DNA of 57,742 nucleotides, taken from positions 1 through 57,742 of the IMG/VR virus record IMGVR_UViG_3300032246_001167; one strand, 5' to 3'. The DNA comes from a virus. A program made the translations under genes and the position numbers. Of this stretch, positions 2,859 to 29,991 are shown in pieces. Each line of letters begins with the position of its first letter. Position 1 is the first letter of the stretch. The notes beneath the pieces are model-generated. The model was given only the letters and a program-made list of their open reading frames with translations. It did not search any database and was not told the DNA's origin.

Positions 2859-3124
2859 TGAACTGGGCAAACATTGTTCCAATGGTCTTTCCCATCCTTG
2901 TGGCGGCGGTGGGCTGGATGATTACGTCGGTCAACTCCCTGCAGTCTGACCTGATCGACATCAAGTCCAAGATGCCTGCGCTGATTACTCCGCAAGGTAC
3001 GCCGACTGATTCACCGATATCTGCGGCTGCTAGAGTTCAGCTTAAAGAAGACCTAGTAACGCGCATCCAAGAACTAGAAGTGCGTGTCCGTCTATTAGAA
3101 GAACGCACAAAGGAGCGCCGCTGA
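2858..3124 (+). CDS. Membrane-anchored coiled-coil protein, lysis cassette (88 aa)
   Basis: An N-terminal hydrophobic segment (IVPMVFPILVAAVGWMITSV) is followed by a polar region and a C-terminal heptad-like helix (TRIQELEVRVRLLEERTKE). This single-pass topology resembles inner-membrane spanin subunits or small holin-accessory proteins. I cannot assign a family. Start and stop overlap both neighbours, so it is translationally coupled into the lysis group. Confidence 0.65.
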   Translation: MNWANIVPMVFPILVAAVGWMITSVNSLQSDLIDIKSKMPALITPQGTPTDSPISAAARVQLKEDLVTRIQELEVRVRLLEERTKERR

Positions 3125-3609: not shown

Positions 3610-4049
3610 AAGCTTCTGACAAATGCAAAGCCATGATCAAGCACCATGAGGGCGTTAGACCAAAGCCATACAAATGCCCAGCTGGGCTATGGACGGTGGG
3701 GGTTGGGCACCTTATCGGGGATGGCAAAACGCTACCGCCAGAGTGGAATCGAACACTCTCGCCGAACGAGGTTGATTCGTTGCTTGCGGCTGACCTACGA
3801 CGTTTTGAAAGAGGCGTCCTTCGTTTGTGCCCTGTGGATCTTACTCAAGGGCAGTTTGACGCCTTGGTCAGCTTTTCGTTTAATCTGGGGCTAGGCGGTC
3901 TGCAACGCAGCTCGGTTCGGATGTGCACCAACCGTGACGATAAAGATGGCGCTGTACGTGGACTGATGAAGTACACCAAAGCTGGCGGCAAGGTGCTGCC
4001 CGGGTTGGTTAGGCGACGTCAAGACGAGTCTGCTCTTTATATGAGTTGA
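3606..4049 (+). CDS. Endolysin: phage lysozyme, glycoside hydrolase family 24
   Basis: A 147-residue lysozyme that would cleave the glycan backbone of peptidoglycan at the end of infection. The catalytic Glu lies in IKHHEGVRPKPYKCPAG and the conserved GLWTVGVGH block follows; the position often held by Asp is Cys, as in a known subgroup of lambdoid endolysins. QFDALVSFSFNLGLG and GLVRRRQDE are the family's C-terminal signatures. Length matches the single-domain family. There is no signal-anchor sequence, so release should depend on the holin. Confidence 0.93.
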   Translation: MKASDKCKAMIKHHEGVRPKPYKCPAGLWTVGVGHLIGDGKTLPPEWNRTLSPNEVDSLLAADLRRFERGVLRLCPVDLTQGQFDALVSFSFNLGLGGLQRSSVRMCTNRDDKDGAVRGLMKYTKAGGKVLPGLVRRRQDESALYMS

Positions 4050-6359: not shown

Positions 6360-7744
6360 GTTTTATTGTCACGACTGACTATGAGCTGCAAAAGCTCCCG
6401 CCGCCAAACTTGCCGCTGGCGCCGCCGCAGTACAGTTCTCAATACACAGAGCAGTTTAACAACGTACTACGGCTGTACTTTAACCGTCTCACCAACATCC
6501 TGGGGCAGCTGATGGCTAGTGGAAATTATGTGCCGGTTACTTTCCCCGGCATGGAGACCGATGCGTTTGGTCGACTACGTATCAGCCAACCCTATACGTT
6601 GTTTGATAGCCAGAACAGATATGCGGCAGACAATCAATTTGATGTAGCAACCACTGGGACTGGGACGACGACGTTCTTGTCTAACGAGGCGGCCCTTCAA
6701 ATGTCAGTCACGGCTGGTGGTGTTGGGTCTGTGACTCGACAAACCTACCGGTCTTTCCCCTATCAGCCGGGCAAAAGTCTTTTGGTCTTGGCTACGTTCG
6801 TGATGAGCGGTAGCACAAGCGCTAGCTTGACTCAGCGGGTTGGGTACTTCAATACCCAGAACGGTGTCTTCTTCCAAAATGTCGGCGGCGTTAATTCGTT
6901 TGTTTTGCGTTCTAACTCTACTCCTACCCCTGGAACACCGAGTGATGTGCGGACTGTGACCCAGGCCAACTGGAATGGAGACAAGCTGGATGGTACGGGA
7001 GACTCAGGTTACACCCTGGATACCTCTAAAGCTCAGATCCTGTTCATGGACTTTGAGTGGCTAGGAGTTGGTTCCGTTAGATGCGGATTCATCATCAACG
7101 GCGAGTACGTCATTTGCCACACTTTCAACAACGCTAACGATATTGCTAGCGTCTACATGACAACGGCTATTCTGCCGATGCGTTATGAGATCACGTCGAC
7201 AGCAGCTGTGGCAGCTTCGATGAAGGCTATTTGCTGCTCAGTGGTATCGGAAGGTGGCTTTGAGCAAACCTCTATTGAACATGTGGCAAGAAGAGTAAAT
7301 GCTACGTCAGCCTCAACTATTACAACTTCTTTTTACCCGATTGCCTCTATACGTTTGGCGTCTGGCGCACTTGATGCCGTTGTGGTTCCTTCGTCGTATA
7401 ACTTTTTGCCAACAACAGCTGATAACTATGAAATTGCGCTGATAAAAAATACAACTCTAACTAGTCCATCTTGGACCGCTGTGCCGACCGATGCAAATGT
7501 CCAATTTGATATTTCCGCCACAGCCATGACTGGCGGCGCGATTGCATCAAGTTCATTCACGACTGGTAAATCTGGCGCTGTTCCATTAACGGCTGGTTCT
7601 GCATACAACTTTGATTTACAGCTTGGCGCATCTATTGCAGGCGTAAGCGATATTTATACTTTGGCAGCACGGGTTGTAACTACAGGAGGGGCTGGCACAG
7701 GCGGTGGTGTAGGCTCCCTTTCCTTCTACGACTTGACTCAGTAA
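6356..7744 (+). CDS. Virion structural protein, two-part (462 aa)
   Basis: The first 55 residues (YELQKLPPPNLPLAPPQYSS, then a helix with FNNVLRLYFNRLTNIL) look like a separate attachment module. The rest is a beta-rich domain with QTYRSFPYQPGKSLLVLAT, LRSNSTPTPGTPSD and IINGEYVICHTFNNAND, a pattern seen in phage appendage proteins. Receptor contact or tail assembly is likely, but the role is not shown. It is coupled by a 4-bp overlap to the upstream tail gene. Confidence 0.6.
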   Translation: MSFIVTTDYELQKLPPPNLPLAPPQYSSQYTEQFNNVLRLYFNRLTNILGQLMASGNYVPVTFPGMETDAFGRLRISQPYTLFDSQNRYAADNQFDVATTGTGTTTFLSNEAALQMSVTAGGVGSVTRQTYRSFPYQPGKSLLVLATFVMSGSTSASLTQRVGYFNTQNGVFFQNVGGVNSFVLRSNSTPTPGTPSDVRTVTQANWNGDKLDGTGDSGYTLDTSKAQILFMDFEWLGVGSVRCGFIINGEYVICHTFNNANDIASVYMTTAILPMRYEITSTAAVAASMKAICCSVVSEGGFEQTSIEHVARRVNATSASTITTSFYPIASIRLASGALDAVVVPSSYNFLPTTADNYEIALIKNTTLTSPSWTAVPTDANVQFDISATAMTGGAIASSSFTTGKSGAVPLTAGSAYNFDLQLGASIAGVSDIYTLAARVVTTGGAGTGGGVGSLSFYDLTQ

Positions 7745-7775: not shown

Positions 7776-8948
7776 ATGGACGGCGGAATAGTTGAAAGCA
7801 TTTTGATCGGAGCCGCTGTCGGCGGGGGCACTTCTGCGCTTACTGGTGGAGATCCTCTTAAGGGCGCCCTGATGGGTGGCGTGACTGGCGGCGTGTTTGG
7901 TGGTGCGGGCGGAGCTGCAGAAGCAGCTGGAACGGCTGGCGGAACAGGCATTACCGCAACCAATCCTTTGACCGCCGCTGGCGTTACATCGGGCGCCGAG
8001 GCCGGCACCACTGCATCTAGCTTGGTTAATGCTGCTCAAGCGGCTGGCGCGCCTATTCAAGGTTTTGCTGGAACCCCAGCTGGGGCAGCCATCCCATCAG
8101 CACCCATCCCAACGGGCGGTATTTCTGATTTGCTCCAACAGCCGATTGGCACGGCAACTGGTGGAATTGGCTTTAAGGCTCCGGCTGATTTTGCAAACCC
8201 TCTGGCTACCAGTGGCGGTTCGGCAATGCCGCAGTTGCCGCCCAGCCTGGCGGGCATGTCACAAGATACTTTGTGGAACACGATTGGGGCAGGCAAGGCC
8301 GCCGGCGCTGAAGCGGCAGCCGCTCCAAAGTCAGTGTTTGGTGATGTCAAAGATTGGTGGAAAGGTCTTACACCCAAAGAAAGGCTTCTTTACGGCGCTG
8401 GCGGTAGCTTGGCACTTAATATGCTTATGCAGCAGGCTAACTATGAGCCGCCGGAAAAGGAAAAGTACAAGGGACCTTTATCAAAGTTCCAGTACGACCC
8501 TAGCTACTACACCCCAACAACCGTTGTGCCGTCTGTATACAGATACGCAGATGGCGGGATTGCCTCTCTTGGTGGGGGTAATATTGCTGTAGGCGGGGAT
8601 CCACGCCGCAATCCATCCCCTCTTGTGGAAAACAGCACGCCGGTAAGTGTAATGGCATCCGGTGGTATTGCCAGTTTGGGCTCATACTCAGATGGCGGCC
8701 AGCTTCTTAAAGGCCCGGGCGATGGCATGAGCGATCACATCCCGGCAATGATTGGTCGCGGGCAGCCGGCTCGTTTGGCAGAAGGCGAATTTGTGGTGCC
8801 CGCTGATGTGGTGTCGCATCTTGGCAACGGGTCGACGGACGCAGGTGCCAAGCAGCTGTATGCAATGATGAACAAAGTTCGCCGCGCACGTACCGGCAAT
8901 GCGAAGCAAGGTCGAGAAATTAACGCCCGCAAATACTTGCCGGCATAA
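7776..8948 (+). CDS. Gly/Ala-rich virion protein with conserved C-terminal module (390 aa)
   Basis: The N-terminus has glycine-zipper-like stretches (GAAVGGGTSALTGGDPLKGA, then GGVTGGVFGGAGGAAEAAG) that could insert in or contact a membrane. Around residues 255-305 the motifs GGIASLGG and GGIASLGS occur. The C-terminus (PARLAEGEFVVPADVVSHLG, then STDAGAKQLYAMMNKVR) is a conserved block I recall in many phage tail and internal virion proteins. Ejection with the genome is an inference. The start is ATG after GGAGAGCACC. Confidence 0.6.
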   Translation: MDGGIVESILIGAAVGGGTSALTGGDPLKGALMGGVTGGVFGGAGGAAEAAGTAGGTGITATNPLTAAGVTSGAEAGTTASSLVNAAQAAGAPIQGFAGTPAGAAIPSAPIPTGGISDLLQQPIGTATGGIGFKAPADFANPLATSGGSAMPQLPPSLAGMSQDTLWNTIGAGKAAGAEAAAAPKSVFGDVKDWWKGLTPKERLLYGAGGSLALNMLMQQANYEPPEKEKYKGPLSKFQYDPSYYTPTTVVPSVYRYADGGIASLGGGNIAVGGDPRRNPSPLVENSTPVSVMASGGIASLGSYSDGGQLLKGPGDGMSDHIPAMIGRGQPARLAEGEFVVPADVVSHLGNGSTDAGAKQLYAMMNKVRRARTGNAKQGREINARKYLPA

Positions 8949-8958
8949 GGAGATAAAC

Positions 8959-9792
8959 ATGGCAGCAGGCGGACAAACAGGTGGTATGGGCGGCGCACAA
9001 ACGGCAGCCCCTGGTGGCGGCACGGGCGTAGGTACTGGCCAACCACCGGCTATGGGTTCAATGCAAATGCCCTCGTATATGCAACAGCCCATGATGGGCA
9101 TGATGGGCGGTTATGGCGGCATGCGAGGTGGTATGCAACAACCCATGATGGGCGGCTATGGCCAGTCGCCGTTTATGGGTGGTGGTTTTGGTGGTGACTA
9201 TGGTGGTTATGGTCAATCACCGTTTATGGGCGGTATGCGTGGCCCGCGAGGCGGTATGGGCTTCAACCCGTACGGTGGCGGCATGGGCTTCAACCCCTAT
9301 GGCGGCATGAACAGGCCCTACGATGGCTTGTATAGCCCGCAGGAGCTGGCAGCCCGAGCAGCACCGGCATCGCCGGGCACTCAGTTTTACCCTAGCTCTA
9401 TGAGCAAACAAGATATTTTGGGGATGCGTTCGCTGGGCGATCAACAAATGCCACAAATGAACCCGCAGCAGGCCCAATATATAGCTAATGAAGGATACAG
9501 GTCCATACCCGCAGCCCCGCGAGCACCCATGACGCAGCAAGATTATCAAAACGCACAAAACCGTATGGGTCAGTTGTTTGGTATGCCTACTAGCGCGTTT
9601 TCGCAATTTGCGTCAAATGCACAAGCTCGACAACCCCAAACACTAAATGATATGTATGGCAACATGGCCACACTCCCGCAGGGATATGCGCGCGATTCAA
9701 GTGGGAATGTGGTGTTTTCTGACGCAGGAATCTCTCTCGCTCACGGTGTTATGTTAGCAAAAGGCGGGATCGCCAGTTTGATCAAAAAATGA
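8959..9792 (+). CDS. Low-complexity Met/Gly/Gln/Pro-rich virion-region protein (277 aa)
   Basis: I chose ATG at 8959, preceded by AAGGAGATAAAC, instead of an earlier in-frame start. Residues 1-120 are almost wholly Gly, Met, Gln, Tyr and Pro in imperfect repeats (QSPFMGG, GGMGFNPYGG). The second half is less repetitive (NPQQAQYIANEGYRSIP). It ends with AKGGIASLIKK, the GGIASL motif shared with the preceding gene. Probably intrinsically disordered; function unknown. Confidence 0.6.
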   Translation: MAAGGQTGGMGGAQTAAPGGGTGVGTGQPPAMGSMQMPSYMQQPMMGMMGGYGGMRGGMQQPMMGGYGQSPFMGGGFGGDYGGYGQSPFMGGMRGPRGGMGFNPYGGGMGFNPYGGMNRPYDGLYSPQELAARAAPASPGTQFYPSSMSKQDILGMRSLGDQQMPQMNPQQAQYIANEGYRSIPAAPRAPMTQQDYQNAQNRMGQLFGMPTSAFSQFASNAQARQPQTLNDMYGNMATLPQGYARDSSGNVVFSDAGISLAHGVMLAKGGIASLIKK

Positions 9793-12001: not shown

Positions 12002-13524
12002 GCATCGTTAGTCAGATCCTCGCCAATCCTGACCGTTACTCGGTGCAGGAGCTTCAACAGGGCATGCAAAGCGGCATGATCCCAGGCTATGTAGCCATCC
12101 CGCTTATTCAAGACAAAGTCAAAAAACAGCAGCGCATGCAGATGGCCATGCAAGGCCAAGGCGCTCCGGGCGAAGATGCCCCGACTGTTGCTGAAGATGT
12201 TCTTCAACAAGCCGATCAGTCGCAAGGTCTGCCAATGTTGGAATCCAACCTACCAGCTGAAGAGCAGTCCTATGCACCCGGCGGTATCGTCGCGTTTGAG
12301 CACGGCGGCCCGGTCAAGCATTTCAAAGTGGGCGGTCTTGATATCGACCCAGAGGATTACGCCAGTTTTGGCGCTAGGGAGTTGTTGGGCCAGGACTATG
12401 TGGATACCTCCAAGGGTATTGCTGCGCTTGAGCCATATGCCAATCTGGATGATGACACCAACCCATCTGGCGGTTTGGCTGACGAGGTTCGCCGCAACAT
12501 GGCGGTTATGCGTCAGTTTTATGGCGAAGCACCTAGCAGCAAAGAAGATATTGGCAAGTTGCGCACTCTCTTGGAGCAGCGTTCAGCACAAGCAGCAGAA
12601 GACGCCAAGACGGCAAAAGAGCGCAACATTATTGGACTGTTGGCTAACATTGCAGCCAATCCATCACAGTACTCAAGCGTAGCCATTGGTTCTGGTACAG
12701 CTAAGAGCCTGCCTGAGTTTGCCGCAGCTGAAGCAGCGCAACGCAAACAGCAGATGGACGACGCAATGGCTGGCCTGTCGCTTACCAAAGCAGAACGTGA
12801 AGAAGCCCTGGCAGGTCTGCCGGGCGCTTTGCAACTTACTGGCTACGGTGCGGACACGGAAGCCAAGAAGGCAGCAGCCAGAGCAAAGGTTGCAATAGCA
12901 CGCATCAACGCAAACAAAGAAAGGTACGGTGGTTTTGACATCCAAGCCATGACTGCTCGTGCAAACGCCATGGCCTTTGAACAGTTTGACAAGCCACTTG
13001 ATCAGCTTGGCCCCAAAGAAAAGGCGAAGGTTTTGGGCGCGGCGGCAACAGCGCAACAGCGAGATAAGCAGGCAGCGCAGTTTGATGCCAATGCAATTAG
13101 AAATGCACTTGGTCTGGGCAACCTAGGTCTCCAGCAATCCAACATTAACCACGAAGCATACTCAGCTTCACTTGCGTCGTTTGACAGAAACAAAGCCACG
13201 GACCGCAGAATCCAGCGTAATTACGACGCAATTGAAAAACAGTTTGGCACTGATGTTGCATTGGATTGGAAAAATAACCAAGTTGCGGCTATTTACAACG
13301 CTAACCCTGGCATTCCGCAAAGACTTCCAATGAAGCAGTTGCCAGAAGGCGTTGCCGCGTTGGTGCAAAAGAAGGGCGGAGAGGCGCCTGCACCAGCCAC
13401 TGCACCTAAGGCCGCCGGTTCAAGTACACTGTCTGCTGTAGACCAGAAGGCTTTGGAATGGGCAAACGCAAACCCCAAAGATCCAAGAGCCGATCAGATT
13501 AAAGCGAGACTAGGAAGCAGGTAA
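11998..13524 (+). CDS. Internal-virion-like helical protein (508 aa)
   Basis: Begins SIVSQILANPDRYSVQELQQ and is mostly helical, Ala/Gln-rich, with a proline-alanine linker before the C-terminus. Residues about 92-115 hold the glycine motif APGGIVAFEHGGPVKHFKVG, related to the GGIA motif of neighbouring proteins. It overlaps the previous gene by 4 bp and its stop touches the start of the giant protein gene, so the three are probably made together. Function is inferred from position only. Confidence 0.55.
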   Translation: MSIVSQILANPDRYSVQELQQGMQSGMIPGYVAIPLIQDKVKKQQRMQMAMQGQGAPGEDAPTVAEDVLQQADQSQGLPMLESNLPAEEQSYAPGGIVAFEHGGPVKHFKVGGLDIDPEDYASFGARELLGQDYVDTSKGIAALEPYANLDDDTNPSGGLADEVRRNMAVMRQFYGEAPSSKEDIGKLRTLLEQRSAQAAEDAKTAKERNIIGLLANIAANPSQYSSVAIGSGTAKSLPEFAAAEAAQRKQQMDDAMAGLSLTKAEREEALAGLPGALQLTGYGADTEAKKAAARAKVAIARINANKERYGGFDIQAMTARANAMAFEQFDKPLDQLGPKEKAKVLGAAATAQQRDKQAAQFDANAIRNALGLGNLGLQQSNINHEAYSASLASFDRNKATDRRIQRNYDAIEKQFGTDVALDWKNNQVAAIYNANPGIPQRLPMKQLPEGVAALVQKKGGEAPAPATAPKAAGSSTLSAVDQKALEWANANPKDPRADQIKARLGSR

Positions 13525-16500
13525 TGGCTTTTGACCCCGATGCTTATCTGCGTGAAAAATCAAAGCCTGAGTTTGACCCTGATGAGTATCTAAGCACAAC
13601 GCCATCAGAGCCCTTTGATCCTGACGCATACCTAGCCTCTACCAAAAAGGCAGAGCCCAGCTTTTTTGACCGTGCCAAAACAGCGGTAACCGACTTTTTC
13701 ACGCCGCATCCCAGCAAAGATGCTGGGCCCGCCATGCTCACGCCTGAAGAAGAGGTGATGGGCGCTGTTGCTGCAGCCCCTCCTCAAGCTGCCCCCAAGG
13801 TTGCACCGCCCCCGCCGGCGCCGATGGTTTATAAGAACCGCCGCGAAGCTTTGGATGACGCGGTCAACATGCTTGAAGAAGGCTTTGACCAGAAGAAAGT
13901 AATCGAGGCATTCCAAAAGCTCAATGTGCCTTGGGATGAGATTGTTAAGTACGGCAAGTCACGTGGCAGCGAGTACTTTGCACCAGGCATCCCGGCCACT
14001 GCAGAGCAAAAGCGTCGTGCTGCTGCAGCACCTCCGGCACCGGTATCGGAGCTGAAGCCCGGTCCTGAGCCGACTTACCTTGAAGGTGCAATGAACGCGT
14101 TTAAGCGCGGAAAAGCCAACATGTCCGATGTAGCAACCGGGATGTTGTTTGAAAGTCGCGTTCTCAACCCAGACGAAGCAGGGCAGATCCTGGCTCGCAA
14201 TGCAAATCAACGCGCTGCAGCTGCACCTTCTTATGAAGTGCAAAAGGGCATGGAGGCCATTGGCAGCGCCAAGACTTATGGCGAAGCAGTAGATGCCCTG
14301 TGGAACAACAAGAGCGCGACTCTAACAATGTTAGTCGACTCGCTGTTTCAAACGGCACCGACTCTTGGAGCGACGGCCGTTGCGGCGCCGCTGGGTGCAT
14401 TGTCACGTTTTGTCTCGACCTTTGGCGCGTCGGGCTCAATGGAATATGCGGGCGTTATCAATGACGTTTTGAATGAAAACGGCGTTGACCTGCGTAACCC
14501 GTCGGCCATTTCCAAGGCATTGAGTGACCCCAAAGTGTTGGAGCAGATGAAAGACAAGGGCATGAAGCGTGGCCTTGTCGTTGGTTTGTTTGATGGTCTT
14601 ACCGCTGGCATTGCTAGTTCTTTCATGAGGCCGGCCGAGGAAATCATTGCGGCCAACAAACTTACGGGCATGCAAGCCAAGAAAGTTGCGGCTGCCACGT
14701 GGGCAAAAGAACTGTCTTTGCAAATGGCTGGCGGTGCCGGTGGTGAATTTGCCGCACAACAGATCACTGGCGAAAACAAACCAGCCGACGTGATCATGGA
14801 AGCGCTAGCGGAAGGCCTAACCGCTCCAGCAGAAGTCATAAGCGCCATGCAAGCTGGCAAAGCCCCTCCGGCTCCAGCAGCAGAAGTCCCGCCGCAAGCA
14901 CCGCCACCTGAGCCCCCGCAAACGCCTCCTAGCCGGGTTGAGCCATTTGTTGGTGAAGAACCGCCAGCCCCAGCGCCAGCCCCCACGGAAGGTATCCCCG
15001 GCATTGTGTCGGCAGCGGAGACCATTCCAGAATCAACTGCTGACCTGACTGAGGAAGAGCAGAACCTTGTTACTGGCTACCTGGCCACTGGGTTTAGCGA
15101 AGAGGAAGCGTTTGACCGGATCATGAAGCGCCGGGAGCGTAAGGGTGGAACTCGTGCCCTGCCTCCAGTTGAAACGCCGATGCCGCCGGTTCAGGCAGAG
15201 CCCAAGCTTCCTGAGCTGCCTTCTAATGAAACAGCAGCTGTCGGCATGCCAACGGTTGAGGTGCCGCTCAAAGATTTGACCCTCTCTAAAGATGTGCCGC
15301 AGTTCAAGATGGGCGCCAATGAGAAGGGCGTGGTTGAGCCTCTTGGCGGCAAGTTTGAGCGCACTGGGGTCGCGCCCATTCAAGTGTGGCGTCGCAACGA
15401 TGGCAGCCTAGAGGTCATCTCTGGTCGGCACCGTTTGGATCTGGCTCGCCGCAGTGGTGAAACAACCATCCCGGCACAGATTCACGATGAGGCCCAAGGC
15501 TTCACGCCGCAGATGGCAGCCGTGTTGGATGCCGAGCTGAACATCCGTGATGGACAAGGAAAGGTCAAAGACTATGTCAATTACTTCAAAGCGTCCGGGA
15601 TCACCCCGCAAGATGCCGAGTCAAGAGGACTTCTGGCAAGAGCAACGGGCAAAAGGGCTTTCACCGTCGCATCTCAGGGCAGTGATGAACTCATTGCCGC
15701 AGTTCGTAACGACCAAGTCCCCGATGAAGCGGCGTACTTCATCGCGCTAAACGCACCTAACGACTCACGTCTTCAGGGCGTGGGTCTGCAGGCTGTCATG
15801 GATGGCAAGTCGGCCAACATTGCGGTCAACACGATGCAAGCCGTCAAGGCGTTGGGCATAGAGAACAACACCACGACGGACATGTTTGGCTTTGACGACA
15901 GCGCTTTGAAAGAAGCGCAAGCCATGGCACAAGTCGCGGCTCGCAAGCAAAGAGAAATCCAAACTCGCCTATCGGCTATCAGCGGTGCAGCCAAGAACCC
16001 GGCGATCGCCAAAGCAGAAGGCATCGACATCCGCGACCCTAACGCTGTTAATCAGCGCATCCAAGAGCTGCGCCAGATGAAGGCAGCTTGGGATAACTGG
16101 TCGACCAACCCGGACCTGATTGGCGAGATCCGCCAGGCTCGCGGTGTTGAAGCTCCCTCACTTACTTTGCGTGGTGAAACGGAAGAAGAGATCCGTGCGC
16201 GTGAAGAAGCAGCTGCAGCAGAGGAGCGTCGCCGCCGGGCTGAAGAAGATGCTGCTAAGAAGGCAGAGCAAGAGGCAGCAGAGCGTGCTCGTGCTGAGCA
16301 GACCGTTGGCCTATTTGAGCTGGGCCAGACCGCAGACCAACAATTGTCTGGCATGGGCGACCTGTTCGCCTCGCAAGAACCGGCTGTTGCGAAAGAGAAG
16401 CCAGCTGAGACAAAGGTCGAGCCTACTGGTGCAGCGCGATTGGTGATGGACAGGGCTCAACGCCTTGCTAATGCTGAAAATAACTTCCGCACATCAGTCA

Positions 16501-19500
16501 TGGAACAGTTTGGCCTGACGGCTGAACAGGCCGACGCGGCGCTACAAAAACTGATTAAGGAAAAGCTGGTTACGCTGAACCCAGATACCGGCCAGGCCGA
16601 CCTGAAGACCGGTGCAGCTTGGGACCGCGATGTCATGCTGCGCGCAGCTGGCGCTGAAGAAGAGCCAAAGGAAGAGCGCAAGCCCGGCGCTACTGATGAC
16701 GAAATCAAGAAGGTCGGTGAGGTCTTTGAAGGTGCTCAAGAGAGCCAGGTCGAAGACGACTTTGAAATTCACCACCTCTTTGATCCTCCCGCAAAGGAGG
16801 ACATTGTTCGCCTGAGCGAGAAGGAAGACTTCCTTACGCCCGAGCAAGCCAAGGCCAAGATTGCCGAGTGGCGCAAGAACGCCGAAGAGCAAGACAAGAA
16901 GGGTCGGGCTAAAGGGCAGATGAACCCCAACTCCGACAAGGTGGTTCTGTCGTTGTTTGACCTGACCGGTGCTTGGAGTGAGCCGTGGGTTGAGGCCGGT
17001 TATCAGGTCTACCGCTTTGACATTCAAGACAAGTGGACGATGAAGGACGAGACCACTGGCGAAGAGGTCAACCTTGGTGACATCAACCAGTTCAGCGTCA
17101 AGTATTTCCAAGACCTCTTTGGCGACTTTGAGGGTAACGACGTCTACGCCATCCTGGCTGCCTGTCCGTGTACAGACTTTGCTTCTAGTGGAGCGCGTCA
17201 CTTCAAGGCCAAGGACGCTAACGGCAAGACGATGGACTCCATCAACCTTGTCAAAAAGACACTGGCCGTTATTGATTACTGGAAGCCTTCCATCTGGGCT
17301 ATTGAAAACCCGGTAGGCCGGATTGAAAAGTTGGGCGGTCTTCCCCCATGGCGGATGTCGTTTGACCCGTACATGTTTGGCGACCCGTATACCAAGAAGA
17401 CTTTGCTGTGGGGCCGCTTCAACGCCGACCTGCCGACTGCTCCTGTTGAACCCACCGAGGGTTCCAAGATGCACCGTCAGTACGGCGGCAAGTCTTTGGC
17501 TACCAAGAACGCCCGCAGCGTTACACCGGAAGGTTTTGCCTATGCGTTCTTCCAAGCCAACAACGCCATCGACAACCCGGTGCTGGCAATCGCTGGCAAG
17601 TATGACCGCCTAGATCGTGACCTTATTCAACAGGCGTTGGATGCTGGCCTTACGGAATACGAAATCCAGCAGTTGGTTGATGACCCGTACTATTTTGATG
17701 GCGACGACGAGGCGGCAGAGAACGCCCTGCGTGCAGCTATTGCGGAGAAGAAATCGCAAAAGCCGGCTGTTGCGAAAGAAAAGCCCACAGAAGAAAAGGA
17801 CCTCTTTGGCGAGCCCACCGAAGAGGCTTTGAAAGCGCAAGCCAGAGAGCTGATGAATACGAAGGTTCGTATTTATGCGTCTGGCATGTCTGCTATCAGC
17901 GATTTGTCTAGGGCTGGCCGTGGCGCTGGCGGTCTTGATCTCAAGGGCGTTGGCGTGGATGTTGGCGAGCTGTCGGCTAACGCCATCAACATGCTTGCCC
18001 ACACGATTGTTAATTTTAACGGTGCCGCGTTTATCGACTCCGGCGCGTTCGGTGCGTTTAGGCGTGGCCTGAAGTCAGGGACCATTACGCCCATTAACTT
18101 TGACAACGTGCTCAAAAAGTACGACGCCATCATTGATGCCGTTGGCCAGACGGCAGAAGAGAATGGTGGGGATTGGTCTGATGTGCCCAACAAGCCGATG
18201 CTCGTCATGCCTGACGTTGTTGGCGACCAAACCGCCTCTCTGGCTGAGCTGAAGAAGCATCTGCGGTGGGTCAAGACTGAGCTCAAACTTAACCATCTGC
18301 AGCTGATCGTCCCGTTGCAACGCGGTGACCTGTCTCTAAGCGATGCCTACAAGGCAATCGTCGACATGCTGGGCACCGATAACTTTGTGGTTGGCATCCC
18401 ATCCAACGCAGCTGCCATCACGCCGCAGGAACTTGAGGCGTTCCTCCGTGAGTCCAAGCCCAAGGCTATTCACATCCTGGGTGCTGGTTCTGAAAAGAAT
18501 CTGCTGCCCCGACTAATCAGTGCCATCAACGCAGGCGTAGCGGACACCACCAAGATCACGGCTGATGCCTCGCCTATCCGTAGCGCTGTGTTGGCCGCAG
18601 TTGCCAACGGGGCAAAACGCGGTGATGCCATTGAACAGTTTGTGTTTGATGAGCGTGACCCGGCCCTTCTAAGGGATCTTGAACGAGCAAAAGCCGAGCC
18701 TGCCGCACCAGCAGCTCCGGTGGAAGCAGTTGCCGAAGAGCCTGTTGCGCCCGCCGAGAAACCAGCCAAGGCACCAAAGGTAGCCAAAGAAAAGCTGCCC
18801 TATACGCCTGAGCAACGCAAGGAAGCAGAGGGTCACGCCGAAGAAATTAAGGGTGATCTGTTCTGGCAGAAGGGCGACTACGCTCTGGTGCGCACCTATT
18901 CACTGACCGGCGACACCATTTACATACCCACAATGGGTTCTAGAAGGGCGATGGTTGTAGACGTCAGGTCGTTTACCAACAAAGCCCTGCCTGAAGACAT
19001 TAAGCAGGAGATGCTTGCGGCTAGAGAACAAGCCGAGCGCGAAGCTGAGATCCGTCACGAGTTTGCTCCGTTCATCAAGTTCAAGGATGGGATTGCTCTA
19101 TCTGAAGACATTCCAGACAACCTGGCTGGCGTCATCCGTGGGTGGAAGGATCTTCTCAAGCTGGATGCGCCGATCTATGTATCCACGATTGAGGATGCAA
19201 GACGCAACAAGAACAATTTCACTGGTCCGCATCGCCGCATCGGGTCTGGCACGATCAATGAAAACGATGCCGGCTCTATGCGCCGCATGAATGATGGCAG
19301 CTATTACATCCTGTTCACCAAGTCGACCAGCCCAACCGTCATGCTGGAAATTTTGGGCCACGAGCTTGGGCACTTGCATCAAGCGTTGGTGTTCGACAGA
19401 GCGCCCCGTGAAACTCAGCAAGCCATCAGAGATGCGCATAAAAATTGGTTGGCATCCCAAAAGGGCAAAACCGCCAAAGAGCTAGTTGCCTCTATGCGTG

Positions 19501-22500
19501 GCCGCGCAACAGCTCGCCGCGTGCGTTACGCAAGCGAAGACCTGAAGGCTGAAGAGGCCAGCTCATACTGGCATTCTTTCAAAGAGTGGTATGCCGACCA
19601 GGTATCGCGCTGGGCTGTATCGGCCGAGGCTCCTACCACCATTGTGGAGAAGTTCTTTAAGCGCCTTGGCAACCAGCTACGCCAGTTCTACCAGCAACTG
19701 AAGAACAAGAAGTACCTGCCTGATGAGACGTTTGCCAAGTACATCAACGAAGTCACGGCCCGCGCTCCAGAACTAACTCCGCCGAAGGATATAAGCGATT
19801 TAGCAGAGCAGTCGCGCAAGATGGTGGAGCCGGAACAAACAAATGAAGATGAAGACGACAAGCTGCTGAGCAAGTACAACCGGCCGAACACGCCGATGTT
19901 GGATGGCAAACCGCTGGGCACGTTCCTTCTGGGACAGTGGAAGAACGGCAAGCAGCTGTTCAAAGACTTCATCAACGACCCGGTAGAAGCGGCAAAGGAT
20001 GCGGGTGATTCAGCATTCGATGCGGTGATCTCAGCCCGGATGCAGACCGTTTGGTTTGGCGCCGGCCTAGAGTCGCGTGATTTCAATCGCTATGGCCGCC
20101 AGCTGCGGACCAGCGAAGGCTTGGCTATTGCCTCGGTTGCTTTGGATAACGCCATCCACAGCGCCAACATTGGCATCCAAGTCTTGTTCCAAGGTGGCTT
20201 GAAGTACGACTCCAAGTTTGGTCGCTTTGTTGCCGTCGAACGCAAGCTTGGTATGCGTGGCGTGTACGAAGCAGAAAAGCGCATGAAGGATCGTATCGGC
20301 GCCCAGAAGGCCACGAACCTTATCAATGGTTATCTGGAAGCCAAGCGTTCGATCAGCATCATGAACGAGCTCTACGATCGCCAGGCCAATTACGAAGATC
20401 TGAAGGCGCATTTAGAAGAGCTGGTCAATCAAGGCGCCAAAGAGGCAGACATCCAGGATGCCCGCGATGATTTGATAGACGCCCAGAATGATCTCAAGGC
20501 CATCCAGAAGGCCGCCTCTTCTGTGCTGATGTCAGAGCAAGAGATGCGCGACTTTGCTGCTTTGGATAAGAGCCATCCAGAGCTGCGCGAGATCATGAAG
20601 AACTTCAACGCCATCAACCAAAACCTGCTTAGGGTTTGGCGTGACGTTGGCCTGTTGTCTGAAAAGCGTTACAACACCCTGGCTGACATTCAGGACTACG
20701 TGCCGTGGCAGCGCCTTATGGAAGACGGCGAAGATCCGCATACGCCGCTCCAGTCGACTAATCGAAACCTGACCAACATCGGCCGGGAGAAGTTGTTCAA
20801 GCGCGGCGCACCAACGGACGTCTTGGACTTTAAGGCTCAGGTAGGTCAGAACACTTTTGAGCTTCCTGCCTCTACAGTCTTAAAGGTTACCGTTGACGGC
20901 AAGCGTGTGCCGGCAGATCTTCTGTCTGTGACTGAAGACGGCAAGTTGCGTATCGACCAGCCGATTGAAGAAGGCGCCTTGGTGGTGTTTAAGGTCACCC
21001 GACCGATCAACAACATCATTGAAAACATGACGCAGAACGTCATGCGCATGAGCATGAACGCCATCCGTCACTACGCAGCTGCGCGGATTGTTTATGAATA
21101 CGGCACGCGTGCGCCTGATGGCAAGTTGATGACCTTCCCCAAGGTGGACAAGGCAAAGAACCGCTTCAACTTCATCATTGATGGGCAAAAGGTTGTGGTG
21201 GAAATCAGCGATCCTTTGGTTGCTGGATCCATCTACGGCATGGAGAACCTTGACCTAGAGATGTGGAAGCCTTTGGCCATGGTCACTAACCTTGTTCGAC
21301 GGTCTATTACTTTGTCTGGGGCGTTCCAGCTTGAGCAGGTTTTGAAAGACGCGCCCACAGCAGCCATGGTTACCGGCGTTAAGCGTCCTGACTTGTTGAT
21401 TGGCGGCGTGCTCAAGGGCCTTATAACCTCTTTGGTCCAGCCTGCCGGCAAAGCGGCGGGTGTTGATATTGAACCCACAGTCAACATCCTTAGAGCTGCC
21501 GGTATTGGTGGATTCCATAGTCCATCCCGTACGTCAGAAGAAACAGTTAAGCGCCGCATTGGGGTGATGAACCGCAATGTTTATTCGGCATCGATTCAAA
21601 TGCTTGACCACATTGGCGACTCTGCCGATATGGCGCAGCGCGTGGCTGTGTACAAGCGCGTCCTTGCAGAAACCGGGGATGAGATGCAGGCGTTGCATCA
21701 GGCGGCCAATGTCATCAACTTCTTGCACCGGGGTTCTGCTGGTTACGCCCAGGTGTTGTTCAAGATCGTGCCGTTTATGAGCGCATACGCCAATGCAACG
21801 GACGTTCTGGCCAACGCTTTGATTGGCGGAAACCTCAAGGGCATGAGCCGCGCCAAGGCCATACGCCGATTGGCTATCGCAACTGCCATGCTGTCCAGCC
21901 TGACGTTAATGTATTGCATGCTTGTGGGCGGTGACCCGGATTATGAAGAGCTTGATGACCAGACGAAGATGCGCAACATCATCGTGCCGGGAACCAAGAT
22001 AAAAATCCCCATGAACACCTCGGCCGCGTACATCTGGAAGGCCGTGCCGGAGATGCTCTACAACACGGTCATCAACGAAGGCACCCAGAACGAAGTAGAC
22101 CGCACCCGCCTTAAGAAGGCTTTGTCTCAAGCGGCTAAAGATATGTTGCTTGGCCCCCCGCCCATTCCGGCTGGCGTTGGCAAAGTAGCAGAAGTGGTTT
22201 TGGACCACGACTTCTACACTGGGCGTGGCGTAATCCCCGAAAACCTCAAGCACGTTGAAGCTTTTGAACAATGGGATGCCTCTACATCTGAGCTAGCCAA
22301 GAAGCTGAGCGCTTATACCGAGGTTCCGGGCACTGATGGCAAGCGTGTCTTGAGCCCCATCGAGGCGGACCACCTGGTGCGTGGTTTGTTTGGTTCAGTT
22401 GGCTTCACCGCTCAGTGGATTTCCAACGCTATTGGTGAGCGCAATGGCGATCGTCCTGAACTGACTGGCCGTGAAACTCCGGTGATTGGCCGGTTTATCA

Positions 22501-22838
22501 GACCTGAAGTTGGCCGGGCTAACGAGGATCTGTTCTACGACCTCAAGCAGCGCGTCGACGAGAAGTATCAGACGTGGAAGACAATGACCGACCGTGGTGA
22601 TGACGATGCGGCCGATGCTTATGAAAACAAGCATGAGGGCTTGCTTGATATGTATCGCGAGGTCAACCAGATCAACGATGCGCTTGGTCAGATCAACGCA
22701 GAAATCCGCGAACTTGGCACAGCCAAGGGCCTAGACATGACTCCTGAGCAGCGTCGCAAGGAAATCACTGATCTCCAGCGCGAGAAGATGGAGCTGGTCG
22801 ACGACATCCGAGAGCTTAGGAAAGAGGCCGGACTTTAA
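13524..22838 (+). CDS. Giant polyvalent protein: ParB-like, C5-MTase-like, TGT-like and metallopeptidase-like domains (3104 aa)
   Basis: Domains in order, with approximate residues. 3-40: three FDP(D)xYL repeats. 190-450: helical region with hydrophobic stretches. 450-510: proline-rich linker. 578-700: ParB/sulfiredoxin-like domain with ISGRHRLDLARR (632-643). 886-930: coiled coil. 1135-1355: C5 DNA-methyltransferase-like domain with SLFDLTGAW (1143-1151), ACPCTDF with candidate nucleophile Cys1216, and ENP (1261-1263). 1447-1715: TGT/DpdA-like barrel with IDSGAF (Asp1505), MPDVVGD (Asp1564), PLQRGD and ADASPIRS. 1946-1950: HELGH zinc motif, with a possible third ligand in KEWYADQ. From about 2150: long helical polyvalent-protein-type domain with a membrane-like segment at 2780-2805. 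Such proteins are thought to be packaged and injected to act early in the cell. Confidence 0.85.
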   Translation: MAFDPDAYLREKSKPEFDPDEYLSTTPSEPFDPDAYLASTKKAEPSFFDRAKTAVTDFFTPHPSKDAGPAMLTPEEEVMGAVAAAPPQAAPKVAPPPPAPMVYKNRREALDDAVNMLEEGFDQKKVIEAFQKLNVPWDEIVKYGKSRGSEYFAPGIPATAEQKRRAAAAPPAPVSELKPGPEPTYLEGAMNAFKRGKANMSDVATGMLFESRVLNPDEAGQILARNANQRAAAAPSYEVQKGMEAIGSAKTYGEAVDALWNNKSATLTMLVDSLFQTAPTLGATAVAAPLGALSRFVSTFGASGSMEYAGVINDVLNENGVDLRNPSAISKALSDPKVLEQMKDKGMKRGLVVGLFDGLTAGIASSFMRPAEEIIAANKLTGMQAKKVAAATWAKELSLQMAGGAGGEFAAQQITGENKPADVIMEALAEGLTAPAEVISAMQAGKAPPAPAAEVPPQAPPPEPPQTPPSRVEPFVGEEPPAPAPAPTEGIPGIVSAAETIPESTADLTEEEQNLVTGYLATGFSEEEAFDRIMKRRERKGGTRALPPVETPMPPVQAEPKLPELPSNETAAVGMPTVEVPLKDLTLSKDVPQFKMGANEKGVVEPLGGKFERTGVAPIQVWRRNDGSLEVISGRHRLDLARRSGETTIPAQIHDEAQGFTPQMAAVLDAELNIRDGQGKVKDYVNYFKASGITPQDAESRGLLARATGKRAFTVASQGSDELIAAVRNDQVPDEAAYFIALNAPNDSRLQGVGLQAVMDGKSANIAVNTMQAVKALGIENNTTTDMFGFDDSALKEAQAMAQVAARKQREIQTRLSAISGAAKNPAIAKAEGIDIRDPNAVNQRIQELRQMKAAWDNWSTNPDLIGEIRQARGVEAPSLTLRGETEEEIRAREEAAAAEERRRRAEEDAAKKAEQEAAERARAEQTVGLFELGQTADQQLSGMGDLFASQEPAVAKEKPAETKVEPTGAARLVMDRAQRLANAENNFRTSVMEQFGLTAEQADAALQKLIKEKLVTLNPDTGQADLKTGAAWDRDVMLRAAGAEEEPKEERKPGATDDEIKKVGEVFEGAQESQVEDDFEIHHLFDPPAKEDIVRLSEKEDFLTPEQAKAKIAEWRKNAEEQDKKGRAKGQMNPNSDKVVLSLFDLTGAWSEPWVEAGYQVYRFDIQDKWTMKDETTGEEVNLGDINQFSVKYFQDLFGDFEGNDVYAILAACPCTDFASSGARHFKAKDANGKTMDSINLVKKTLAVIDYWKPSIWAIENPVGRIEKLGGLPPWRMSFDPYMFGDPYTKKTLLWGRFNADLPTAPVEPTEGSKMHRQYGGKSLATKNARSVTPEGFAYAFFQANNAIDNPVLAIAGKYDRLDRDLIQQALDAGLTEYEIQQLVDDPYYFDGDDEAAENALRAAIAEKKSQKPAVAKEKPTEEKDLFGEPTEEALKAQARELMNTKVRIYASGMSAISDLSRAGRGAGGLDLKGVGVDVGELSANAINMLAHTIVNFNGAAFIDSGAFGAFRRGLKSGTITPINFDNVLKKYDAIIDAVGQTAEENGGDWSDVPNKPMLVMPDVVGDQTASLAELKKHLRWVKTELKLNHLQLIVPLQRGDLSLSDAYKAIVDMLGTDNFVVGIPSNAAAITPQELEAFLRESKPKAIHILGAGSEKNLLPRLISAINAGVADTTKITADASPIRSAVLAAVANGAKRGDAIEQFVFDERDPALLRDLERAKAEPAAPAAPVEAVAEEPVAPAEKPAKAPKVAKEKLPYTPEQRKEAEGHAEEIKGDLFWQKGDYALVRTYSLTGDTIYIPTMGSRRAMVVDVRSFTNKALPEDIKQEMLAAREQAEREAEIRHEFAPFIKFKDGIALSEDIPDNLAGVIRGWKDLLKLDAPIYVSTIEDARRNKNNFTGPHRRIGSGTINENDAGSMRRMNDGSYYILFTKSTSPTVMLEILGHELGHLHQALVFDRAPRETQQAIRDAHKNWLASQKGKTAKELVASMRGRATARRVRYASEDLKAEEASSYWHSFKEWYADQVSRWAVSAEAPTTIVEKFFKRLGNQLRQFYQQLKNKKYLPDETFAKYINEVTARAPELTPPKDISDLAEQSRKMVEPEQTNEDEDDKLLSKYNRPNTPMLDGKPLGTFLLGQWKNGKQLFKDFINDPVEAAKDAGDSAFDAVISARMQTVWFGAGLESRDFNRYGRQLRTSEGLAIASVALDNAIHSANIGIQVLFQGGLKYDSKFGRFVAVERKLGMRGVYEAEKRMKDRIGAQKATNLINGYLEAKRSISIMNELYDRQANYEDLKAHLEELVNQGAKEADIQDARDDLIDAQNDLKAIQKAASSVLMSEQEMRDFAALDKSHPELREIMKNFNAINQNLLRVWRDVGLLSEKRYNTLADIQDYVPWQRLMEDGEDPHTPLQSTNRNLTNIGREKLFKRGAPTDVLDFKAQVGQNTFELPASTVLKVTVDGKRVPADLLSVTEDGKLRIDQPIEEGALVVFKVTRPINNIIENMTQNVMRMSMNAIRHYAAARIVYEYGTRAPDGKLMTFPKVDKAKNRFNFIIDGQKVVVEISDPLVAGSIYGMENLDLEMWKPLAMVTNLVRRSITLSGAFQLEQVLKDAPTAAMVTGVKRPDLLIGGVLKGLITSLVQPAGKAAGVDIEPTVNILRAAGIGGFHSPSRTSEETVKRRIGVMNRNVYSASIQMLDHIGDSADMAQRVAVYKRVLAETGDEMQALHQAANVINFLHRGSAGYAQVLFKIVPFMSAYANATDVLANALIGGNLKGMSRAKAIRRLAIATAMLSSLTLMYCMLVGGDPDYEELDDQTKMRNIIVPGTKIKIPMNTSAAYIWKAVPEMLYNTVINEGTQNEVDRTRLKKALSQAAKDMLLGPPPIPAGVGKVAEVVLDHDFYTGRGVIPENLKHVEAFEQWDASTSELAKKLSAYTEVPGTDGKRVLSPIEADHLVRGLFGSVGFTAQWISNAIGERNGDRPELTGRETPVIGRFIRPEVGRANEDLFYDLKQRVDEKYQTWKTMTDRGDDDAADAYENKHEGLLDMYREVNQINDALGQINAEIRELGTAKGLDMTPEQRRKEITDLQREKMELVDDIRELRKEAGL

Positions 22839-22850
22839 CAATGTTAAAGT
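22832..22850. promoter_or_regulatory. Palindromic operator-like site A
   Basis: Perfect inverted repeat, arms ACTTTAACA and TGTTAAAGT around a single A. It overlaps the stop codon of the giant gene and lies between the convergent ends of that gene and rusA. The same arms recur at 28198-28220 and three times at 38394-38493. It could be a repressor site, a stoperator-like roadblock or a partition site. Confidence 0.7.
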
Positions 22851-27669: not shown

Positions 27670-27863
27670 GCTTTCCGGTTACGTATGAGCAGCTGTGCAT
27701 GATGCGCAACCTCATAGAGACTGGGATTGATAACTCGTACGACCGCGAGGAAAGGATGGAGCTTAGGACTCTTTTGTCCTCTCTCTACTCCGTTCAGATG
27801 GAAGGCGGCCGCACCTTTGGCGAGCTGATCAGGATGATCGAGACAGAAGGAAAAATTGAATAA
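27633..27863 (+). CDS. Hypothetical small protein (76 aa)
   Basis: Preceded by AAGGGGAGAGAA. The product has a beta N-terminus (RYVDVTLYDLSFPVTYEQLC) and a helical remainder (RMELRTLLSSLYSVQMEGGR). Overlaps the previous gene by 37 bp in another frame and the next by 8 bp. Confidence 0.5.
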   Translation: MDRYVDVTLYDLSFPVTYEQLCMMRNLIETGIDNSYDREERMELRTLLSSLYSVQMEGGRTFGELIRMIETEGKIE

Positions 27864-28149
27864 CAAGCTCACCCCTTCTGAGAGACGTCACCTGCAAAAG
27901 GTTAAGTCCTTGCCGTGTGGAGTCTGCGGAGCTGCTGGACCGAGCGATGCCCACCACATTGAGCAGCACAAGCAGTACCTGTGCATTCCTTTATGTCGGG
28001 ACTGTCACCAGGGATCTCATAACGGTATCCATGGCGAGAAGCGGATCTGGTCTGTCTACAAGAAGACCGAGCTGTCGGTTCTCAACGACACCATTAAGAC
28101 GTTGCTGGACAATCCACAACCGTGTCAGAATGCGCGGGCCTCCTCCTAG
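27856..28149 (+). CDS. Ref/HNH-like nuclease (97 aa)
   Basis: Zinc and HNH features are visible: two Cys (LPCGVCGAAGPSD), the pair AHHIEQH, then LCIPLCRDCHQGSHNGIHG. This matches the C-terminal nuclease core of the P1 Ref (RecA-dependent nuclease) family, which cuts recombination intermediates. It starts at TTG 27856 with GAAGGA upstream. It ends the first recombination operon, directly before a strong terminator. Confidence 0.75.
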   Translation: MNNKLTPSERRHLQKVKSLPCGVCGAAGPSDAHHIEQHKQYLCIPLCRDCHQGSHNGIHGEKRIWSVYKKTELSVLNDTIKTLLDNPQPCQNARASS

Positions 28150-28197: not shown

Positions 28198-28220
28198 GTA
28201 CTTTAACAATGTTAAAGTAC
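28198..28220. promoter_or_regulatory. Palindromic operator-like site B
   Basis: A 23-bp perfect inverted repeat, arms GTACTTTAACA and TGTTAAAGTAC around one A. It lies between the terminator and the hammerhead ribozyme, five bases before the ribozyme's first stem. It would control or mark the start of the transcript that carries the ribozyme and the structured RNA. Confidence 0.72.
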
Positions 28221-28225
28221 AGACA

Positions 28226-28271
28226 GTCCTTCTGATGAGCCGTGAGTCGGCGAAACCTACGGGTAAAGGAC
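28226..28271 (+). ncRNA. Type I hammerhead self-cleaving ribozyme
   Basis: All conserved hammerhead elements are present in order. Stem I GTCCTT (28226-28231) pairs with AAGGAC (28266-28271). The core CTGATGA is at 28232-28238. Stem II GCCG/CGGC (28239-28242 and 28248-28251) has loop TGAGT. GAAA follows at 28252-28255. Stem III (A28255-T28264, C28256-G28263, C28257-G28262) is capped by TACG, a UNCG tetraloop. The cleavage triplet is GTA, so the cut falls after A28265. The open ends are in stem I, which defines type I. Cleavage would set the 5' end of the downstream structured RNA. Confidence 0.92.
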
Positions 28272-28820
28272 AGCGTGACCTTCCGGTGTAGCGGGCTGCG
28301 TGGGGTTTTCCCGAGGACGAAAGGGTGAAGTAAGGGGTCGCGAACCCGAGCTGCAGCCTGATTAGTAAACCGGACTGTTGACAACGGATTTAGTTGGACA
28401 TACGATGCACGTGTCTGGGGTGGCTCCCGGGCGACGATAGGAACCCCGATATTTTGGTAGGGGCTTTGTGTGACTCAAATCGCATCCTATCTGCGCCTAG
28501 AGTTGCCCAACGCCAAGGGCCTAAGCCTCTACCAAAGTGTCGGGGTTTTTCTTTGGCCAGACCGCTCAGCTTGTGGGGTAACCGCAGGAGCTGGGGGATA
28601 AGCGAGACTGTGGGATAGTTCTGAGAACTCGCAAACGGCGGCGAAGAGAGCACCGTTGGAACGAAAAGGCTGTCGGGTGCTGTGGCTCCGTAGAGGGATA
28701 CAGTTGAAGGCGCACCTGGGATGGGCTAGGTGCGTCCACCATAGCGGGATGTTCGGGGTTAAGGTGTTGAAGTTAAGGTGTTAGGGGTAGACAGCGTTGG
28801 CCGGGTGGTAAAATGACCAC
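28266..28820 (+). ncRNA. Large structured noncoding RNA
   Basis: About 550 nt without a credible gene but full of complementary segments. TCCGGT (28282-28287) pairs with ACCGGA (28369-28374), enclosing GGGCTGC (28293-28299) with GCAGCCT (28353-28359). A 24-bp helix joins 28442-28465 to 28524-28547, with all three sequence differences kept as G-U pairs. GATAGGA (28436-28442) can pair with TCCTATC (28485-28491) inside that helix's loop, making a pseudoknot. Further hairpins lie at 28567-28593, 28602-28632 and 28709-28736. GTTAAGGTGTT occurs twice (28758-28768 and 28772-28782). The scale recalls ornate phage and lake RNAs such as GOLLD or ROOL, but I cannot assign a class. Confidence 0.75.
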
Positions 28821-29151: not shown

Positions 29152-29991
29152 ATGAAGAAGCTGAACCTGGACATCATCCGCCTGGATGGTGGCACACAAG
29201 CCCGCGTATCGCTTAACACTGACGTTGTTGCCGAGTATGCGGCGCACTTGCAAGATGGCGATATCTTCCCGCCGATCACCGTGTTTCACGATGGTGGCGA
29301 CTACTGGCTGGCAGACGGCTTTCATCGCTACATGGCGAATAAGCAGAACGGCTCAGTCGAGATTGAGTGTGACGTGAGGATCGGCACGCTGGAAGACGCC
29401 AAGCTGTATGCCTATGGCGCTAACGGCAAGCGCGGCCTGTCGATGTCACGTGAAGACAAGCGCAAAGTTATTCTCCTCATGCTTCAGCACCCGGAGTGGA
29501 GCAAGTGGGCAAACACCGAGATTGCCAAGCATATCGGCGTGTCGAGTATGACCATTGGCCGGGTGAAGTCGGGCCTGATCTACGACGCTGAAAAAGATTC
29601 AGAGCCCAAGCAGTTCACCAAACAGGGCAAGGTCCAAAAGATGGACACCACAAAACTTGGCCGCTTCAAGAAGGAGCCGGTTGAACCTGTTGTTGAAGAG
29701 CCCAAGTTTGATGAGACGCAAGAGTTCATTGATGAACTCACAGACACCATCAATGCGTTGAGTCTTGAGAACCAGAAGCTCAAGGACATCATTGCGGTTG
29801 GGGCGTGGGATGCTACCGAGTTTGAGAAGATGGACATTCAAGAAACCATCGAGCAGTTGCGCGAGCAGATCCGCGTGTTGGAGATTGATAACAGCGCCCT
29901 GCGGGAAAGCCGGGACATGTTCCAGTCTCGCAATGCCGAACTGATGGATACTGTGAAGTCGCTGCAAAACAAGCTGAAGAAAGCCGCTTAA
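29152..29991 (+). CDS. ParB-like nuclease-domain protein with HTH and coiled coil (279 aa)
   Basis: Residues 1-95 form a ParB/sulfiredoxin-like domain (IIRLDGGTQARVS, then YWLADGFHRYMANKQNG, where DGFHR replaces the usual GxRR box). A helix-turn-helix follows near residues 120-145 (NTEIAKHIGVSSMTIGRVKS), then a charged linker and a C-terminal coiled coil (ETIEQLREQIRVLEIDNSAL). This architecture fits a site-specific DNA-binding phage ParB homologue. It could bind the repeated CTTTAACA/TGTTAAAG palindromes, one of which lies 930 bp upstream. The ribosome site is AAGGAGAACAC. Confidence 0.8.
   Translation: MKKLNLDIIRLDGGTQARVSLNTDVVAEYAAHLQDGDIFPPITVFHDGGDYWLADGFHRYMANKQNGSVEIECDVRIGTLEDAKLYAYGANGKRGLSMSREDKRKVILLMLQHPEWSKWANTEIAKHIGVSSMTIGRVKSGLIYDAEKDSEPKQFTKQGKVQKMDTTKLGRFKKEPVEPVVEEPKFDETQEFIDELTDTINALSLENQKLKDIIAVGAWDATEFEKMDIQETIEQLREQIRVLEIDNSALRESRDMFQSRNAELMDTVKSLQNKLKKAA

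What the first reader, a model, noticed from the sequence alone, without database searches (positions are those of the whole stretch)
28226..28271. Textbook type I hammerhead ribozyme in a phage early region
Every conserved core nucleotide is present: CTGATGA, GAAA, three stems and a GTA cleavage triplet. Stem III is capped by a UNCG tetraloop and stem II is close to the classic natural design. The ribozyme lies between a terminator plus operator and a long structured RNA, so cleavage after 28265 would trim that RNA precisely. Hammerheads are known in some phages, but coupling to a large noncoding RNA like this is worth documenting.
Basis: partly seen in the sequence, partly recalled or inferred. 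Interest (0 to 1): 0.9.

Follow-up and report, generated by a model that had tools for sequence, protein, structure and literature searches.

The report
Phage hammerhead ribozyme on leader RNA
The short sequence is almost certainly a genuine self-cutting RNA (a hammerhead ribozyme) carried by a small group of related bacterial viruses, where it sits directly in front of a previously undescribed folded RNA element; it is a new example of a known ribozyme rather than a new kind, and it probably does not set the start of the big RNA further downstream, as first thought.

Summary
Window 28226-28271 (+) has every type I hammerhead core nucleotide, three stems and a predicted cut after A28265. None of 200 dinucleotide-preserving shuffles of the window gave such a motif. 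Comparative evidence replaces it: orthologues at the same site in related phage contigs keep the core and stem I, change stem II by compensatory swaps, and carry three different, paired stem IIIs.

The ribozyme is joined to a ~106-nt conserved structured module, here called M1 (28272-28377). A sigma-70-type promoter follows at 28378-28406, then a long T-tailed hairpin and the Betaproteobacteria-1 RNA (RF02932, 92.6 bits), 298 nt beyond the cut. Relatives of that RNA usually lack a hammerhead, and several carry their own promoter at about the same distance. In L190, HH-M1 lies ~1.7 kb from the promoter-hairpin unit and precedes a small ORF. In L223, M1 occurs without a hammerhead.

Best reading: a 5'-end maturation ribozyme for the M1 leader. 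Cleavage itself is untested.

The parts
27856..28149 (+). Upstream gene: short HNH-like/DUF968-like protein; HH-M1 lies directly after it in the related phages
   Evidence: phrog_1588 E 3.9e-14; weak PF06147, below its cut-off; 85-89% identical copies directly upstream of HH-M1 in L190, L193, L206
28169..28196 (+). Intrinsic-terminator-like hairpin with T-run
   Evidence: similar terminators before HH in L190 and L206
28198..28220 (.). Palindrome GTACTTTAACA-A-TGTTAAAGTAC, operator-like; second copy of its core at 22832-22850
   Evidence: chance expectation 0.01; arms change compensatorily in L081; not present next to HH in L190
28226..28271 (+). Type I hammerhead ribozyme: stem I 28226-28231/28266-28271, CTGATGA 28232-28238, stem II 28239-28251, GAAA 28252-28255, stem III 28256-28263 with UACG loop, U28264, predicted cleavage after A28265
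28272..28377 (+). M1: conserved structured module following the ribozyme (AGCnnGACCUuCCGGUGUA ... GUAGURAACCGG)
   Evidence: alignments A1/A3 and RNAalifold, 29 pairs, 7 with double changes; covariance model R1 hits only the HH loci (and the L005 end of the same L208 contig) among 72 sources plus HH-less L223, 33.7 bits
28378..28406 (+). Sigma-70-type promoter TTGACA-17-TACGAT abutting M1; presumed start of the long RNA
   Evidence: same position and hexamers in L081, L001 and L206
28441..28553 (+). Long imperfect hairpin with T-run (arms 28442-28466 and 28523-28547)
   Evidence: analogous hairpins before the core in many relatives
28563..28678 (+). Betaproteobacteria-1 RNA core (RF02932); similarity to relatives extends to about 28745
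   Evidence: 92.6 bits, cut-off 49.4; 68 of the 190 sequences searched match at E<=1e-3
29152..29991 (+). ParB-like gene; with helicase and primase genes it follows the RNA locus
   Evidence: orthologues L207-L218

Best explanation
28226-28271 is a functional type I hammerhead ribozyme that folds as soon as it is transcribed and cuts after A28265. The cut removes the 5' part of the transcript and leaves a downstream RNA with a 5'-hydroxyl, beginning AAGGAC-AGC, that carries the M1 module. Its main job is to give the M1 leader RNA a fixed 5'-hydroxyl end, possibly making the leader more stable or freeing it to fold. In the window the same transcript may read on through the long hairpin and Betaproteobacteria-1 RNA toward the ParB-helicase-primase genes. 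Shown: the complete motif, its selective conservation, its near-constant link to M1, and a separate promoter-like element for the long RNA. Inferred: catalysis, co-transcriptional timing, 5'-end maturation as the purpose, and any effect on stability.
For: Complete core and correct fold; none in 200 shuffles. Same-site relatives keep the core and stem I invariant, swap stem II pairs C-G to G-C and G-C to C-G, and replace stem III with longer stems (about 10 and 12 bp) of unrelated sequence; 100% of helix cells paired, covariation score 0.25 against 0.07 in shuffles and at most 0.014 when partners are slid. M1 was found next to HH in every phage carrying HH at this site, and elsewhere only in L223. 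In L190 a TTGAAA-16-TACAAT promoter ends 9 nt before stem I, which places the ribozyme at the very 5' end of its transcript.
Against: No cleavage data. The Rfam score is below threshold. Stem I never varies, so it has no covariation support of its own. In the 158-nt precursor fold, stem I forms in only about 40% of the ensemble; one competitor visible in the sequence is 28223-28229 pairing with the M1 3' end. No convincing promoter lies just upstream of the ribozyme in the window itself. The M1 structure rests on four or five distinct sequences.
Confidence: 0.6

Rival explanations
1. One reading: the ribozyme trims the 5' end of the long structured RNA (hairpin plus Betaproteobacteria-1 core), so ribozyme, M1 and core are one large noncoding RNA.
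For: They are adjacent and on the same strand in the window, L081, L001 and L208, and M1 plus hairpin also in L206; the HH product and the long RNA could be one read-through transcript.
Against: A separate promoter-like element follows M1 and recurs about 150-200 nt upstream of the core in relatives without a hammerhead. Hammerheads upstream of the core are rare among its relatives. In L190 HH-M1 is about 1.7 kb from the promoter-hairpin unit.
Confidence: 0.15
2. Operon punctuation: the ribozyme cuts transcripts that read through the terminator from the upstream early genes, separating their mRNA from the downstream operon, as proposed for hammerheads flanking prophage genes.
For: It sits between a terminator and the next genes with no clear promoter of its own in the window. 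Hammerheads flanking gene blocks in prophages were proposed to do this (PMC3088659).
Against: A terminator already sits there. In L190 a promoter just upstream makes the ribozyme transcript-initial. Punctuation alone does not explain the link to M1.
Confidence: 0.25
3. An inactive or slow relic that resembles a hammerhead.
For: Sub-threshold Rfam score; very short stem III in the window form. Type I hammerheads with unstable helix III can depend on dimers (PMC6155905).
Against: Core invariant while stems II and III changed with pairing kept in relatives; the 2-bp stem III carries a UNCG-type loop, expected to be unusually stable (general knowledge).
Confidence: 0.1
4. M1 is a control domain: the stem I strand and the M1 end exchange partners (28223-28229 with 28372-28378, or 28266-28271 with 28277-28282), so M1 folding or a ligand switches cleavage on or off.
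For: Stem I is invariant while stems II and III are free, which suggests a second constraint; the alternative pairings exist in the window sequence, and stem I is only partly populated in the predicted ensemble of the precursor.
Against: The 3' partner GGACTG is absent in L190, the pairings have no covariation support, and no ligand is known.
Confidence: 0.1

Closest known systems
Hammerhead ribozyme type I (Rfam RF00163) and prophage/phage hammerheads of Perreault et al. 2011 (PMC3088659)
   Same: Core CUGANGA...GAAA...UH, three stems, open stem I, phage intergenic location.
   Different: Stem III is only 2 bp with a UACG loop in the window form, or is replaced by long unrelated stems in relatives; score below the family cut-off; fused to the M1 module.
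Hammerhead HH9 (RF02275) and other short-stem-III hammerheads
   Same: Small stem III directly beside the cleavage site; the L194 hammerhead, with the same 2-bp UNCG stem III design, scores 28.6 bits with HH9.
   Different: The window copy matches RF00163 best and its stem I is only 6 bp, with no evident outer helix like that of L194.
Betaproteobacteria-1 RNA (RF02932)
   Same: The downstream core is a member (92.6 bits).
   Different: It is a neighbour, not part of the ribozyme; most relatives have no hammerhead upstream.
GOLLD / ROOL large phage RNAs
   Same: Large structured phage RNA; one relative (MW202545) has a run of tRNA-like genes just upstream of the core, read by eye.
   Different: No Rfam match to either family in this region.

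Membership tests
Hammerhead ribozyme, type I | Conserved core CUGANGA, GAAA, UH before the cleavage site | tested here: met
   all core positions present and invariant in same-site relatives
Hammerhead ribozyme, type I | Three helices with stem I open | tested here: met
Hammerhead ribozyme, type I | Covariance-model score above the curated cut-off (RF00163, 34 bits) | tested here: not met
   20.1 bits, full-length alignment; this is a curation threshold, not a biochemical feature
Hammerhead ribozyme, type I | Compensatory change in stems among relatives | tested here: met
   stems II and III; stem I never varies, so it is uninformative
Hammerhead ribozyme, type I | Loop II / stem I tertiary contact for fast cleavage | not testable with these tools
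   no pseudoknot could be assigned; flanks of stem I differ between relatives
Hammerhead ribozyme, type I | Self-cleavage after H17 giving 5'-OH and 2',3'-cyclic phosphate | not testable with these tools
   needs an in vitro or in vivo assay
Betaproteobacteria-1 RNA (RF02932), for the downstream core | Covariance-model score above cut-off | tested here: met
   92.6 bits against 49.4
HDV-like ribozyme, considered for M1 | Match to the family model, with a catalytic C in J4/2 | tested here: not met
   no HDV family match at E<=10; no conserved C before AACCGG
GOLLD/ROOL, considered for the long RNA | Match to the family model | tested here: not met

The most novel reading that the evidence does not exclude
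HH-M1 is a natural regulated ribozyme: M1, attached directly after the stem I strand, controls or is released by hammerhead cleavage through strand exchange with the invariant stem I, making a phage leader RNA whose function is switched by self-cutting.
Probability: 0.1. Interest if true: 0.8.

Novelty: new member of a known kind. Interest (0 to 1): 0.45.

Why it matters
The biological role of hammerheads in phages is an open question (PMC6155905 and PMC10085705 say so). Here the ribozyme has a conserved partner, M1, that also exists without it (L223), so the role can be tested by comparing the two. It also shows that Rfam's cut-off misses a family of phage hammerheads whose stem III is exchanged freely.

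Tried and rejected
The first pattern scan for the hammerhead used a spacer one base too long and found nothing; corrected. Annotated phage and plasmid collections hold no DNA match to the regions queried. Neither M1 nor this hammerhead pattern was found in about 300 genomes of the family (M1 model only) or 369 of the class around one betaproteobacterial genome, so HH-M1 looks phage-borne, but that sample is partial. An HDV-like reading of M1 was considered because of its strand order and dropped (no Rfam match, no conserved catalytic C). A hairpin-promoter reading of the palindrome (virion RNA polymerase type) was considered and dropped: Pfam found only an LPD38 domain in the 3104-aa protein. 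L195-L203, L205, L221 and L222 matched an M1 pattern but look like chance hits, with no M1-like sequence downstream. L192 and most genome-contig hits also look like chance matches.

Full report
OBSERVATION. Window 28226-28271 reads GTCCTT CTGATGA GCCG-TGAGT-CGGC GAAA CC-TACG-GG TA | AAGGAC, a complete type I hammerhead with predicted cleavage after A28265. It folds as drawn. A strict descriptor found no such motif in 200 dinucleotide shuffles of the window. Rfam does not report it at gathering threshold. In a narrow search RF00163 aligns along its whole length with 20.1 bits (cut-off 34). The 2-bp stem III may contribute, but the L206 orthologue with a 12-bp stem III is also below threshold.

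COMPARATIVE TEST. Pattern and protein scans of viral contigs recovered the same site in L001, L081 (also L207), L204/L208, L206 and L190/L193. In all of them the ribozyme core and stem I are identical. Stem II is GCCG/CGGC or GGCC/GGCC. Stem III is CC-TACG-GG (window, L001, L081, L190, L193), CCTATCGCCC...GGGCGTTAGG (L208) or CCAAGACCGTC...GGCGGTCTTGG (L206). On the alignment all helix cells pair, five cells have changes on both sides, and sliding partners by 1-3 columns nearly abolishes covariation. Five sequences are few, but wholesale replacement of stem III with pairing preserved is hard to explain without function.

WHAT IT IS ATTACHED TO. Directly after stem I lies M1 (28272-28377). A covariance model of it found only the HH-bearing loci among 72 sources (L005 is the other end of the L208 contig) and then, independently, L223, where M1 has no hammerhead and lies between two genes. 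The conserved AGC at the M1 start is kept in L223, so the module begins just after stem I. After M1 comes TTGACA-17-TACGAT at 28378-28406, then a long hairpin with a T-run, then the Betaproteobacteria-1 core. Of the 190 sequences searched (window plus loci), 68 match this core at E<=1e-3, and 58 of those have at least 400 nt upstream. Seventeen of the 58 show a strict promoter match; 15 of these lie 148-196 nt before the core, and the other two lie at -239 and -38. A hammerhead with full core was seen upstream of the core only in the window, L001 and L081, and later in L208. A further candidate in L058 came from a relaxed core (CTGGAGA) and appears to lie in coding sequence; I discount it.

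SEPARABILITY. In L190 and L193 HH-M1 follows the same HNH-like gene (89% identical) but is followed by a small ORF with a ribosome-binding-site-like sequence. In L190 the promoter-hairpin unit lies about 1.7 kb further on and is followed by a different conserved RNA. So the ribozyme-M1 unit and the long RNA are separate modules that happen to be neighbours in the window.

MECHANISM. In L190 a promoter ends 9 nt before stem I, which makes the ribozyme transcript-initial. The simplest role is then to fix the 5' end, and its chemistry, of the M1 leader. In the window no convincing promoter was found there; a palindrome takes the place, and its core recurs once, at 22832. Read-through from upstream genes is therefore also possible, and operon punctuation remains a live rival. 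The invariant stem I hints at a second constraint. One candidate is pairing of 28223-28229 with the M1 3' end; stem I is only about 40% populated in the predicted ensemble of the precursor, but L190 lacks that partner.

CONTEXT. Neighbouring genes encode a ParB-like protein, helicase and primase. More distant annotated relatives of the locus are Acidovorax phage AP1 and Caudoviricetes sp. MW202545, which carry the core RNA and these replication genes; the descriptor found no hammerhead in the 12-13 kb stretches examined. A betaproteobacterial host is likely by inference.

NOVELTY. Phage hammerheads, including ones beside genes, are known (PMC3088659). This is a new member. M1, and its link to the ribozyme, match nothing in Rfam 15 at the thresholds used, and I found no description of them in the papers searched, which was a limited search.

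Noticed in passing
L191 reverse strand 7532-7585, 8056-8116, 9006-9068, 9299-9371: Four hammerheads in a row on one phage contig, all with stem I GGTTAA/TTAACC and a GTC cleavage site, separated by roughly 230-890 nt, at least one gap holding a small ORF.
   Followed up: partly
L194 3793-3837: HH9-like hammerhead (28.6 bits, sub-threshold) with 2-bp UUCG-capped stem III and an outer stem I helix, just upstream of two Rfam tRNA matches in a 57-kb phage contig from an isolate genome.
   Followed up: partly
L209 about 3550-3950, L214 about 2850-3150, L190 about 4290-4542: A different conserved RNA (ACCAGCCTGTCARCGAGGGACTGGTGTAG...) follows the same kind of promoter and long T-tailed hairpin; no Rfam match.
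   Followed up: partly
window 22832-22850 and 28200-28218: Identical 19-bp palindrome ACTTTAACAATGTTAAAGT at two places, at the end of the 3104-aa gene and just before the hammerhead; chance expectation 0.01.
   Followed up: partly
window 13524-22838: Gene for a 3104-aa protein with an LPD38 domain near its C-terminus.
   Followed up: no
L059 5482-5533 (+): Another full-core hammerhead (ACCCAA stem I, GTC site) on a contig carrying the Betaproteobacteria-1 RNA on the opposite strand.
   Followed up: no
L220 (MW202545) about 6200-7140: Run of tRNA-like genes directly upstream of the promoter, long hairpin and Betaproteobacteria-1 core, seen by eye; annotated ORFs overlap the RNA core.
   Followed up: no
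window 28277-28282 and 28313-28318: GACCTT in M1 could pair with the internal (A/G)AGG(T/A)C segment, perfectly in L081 and L223, as a pseudoknot; not supported in L190.
   Followed up: partly
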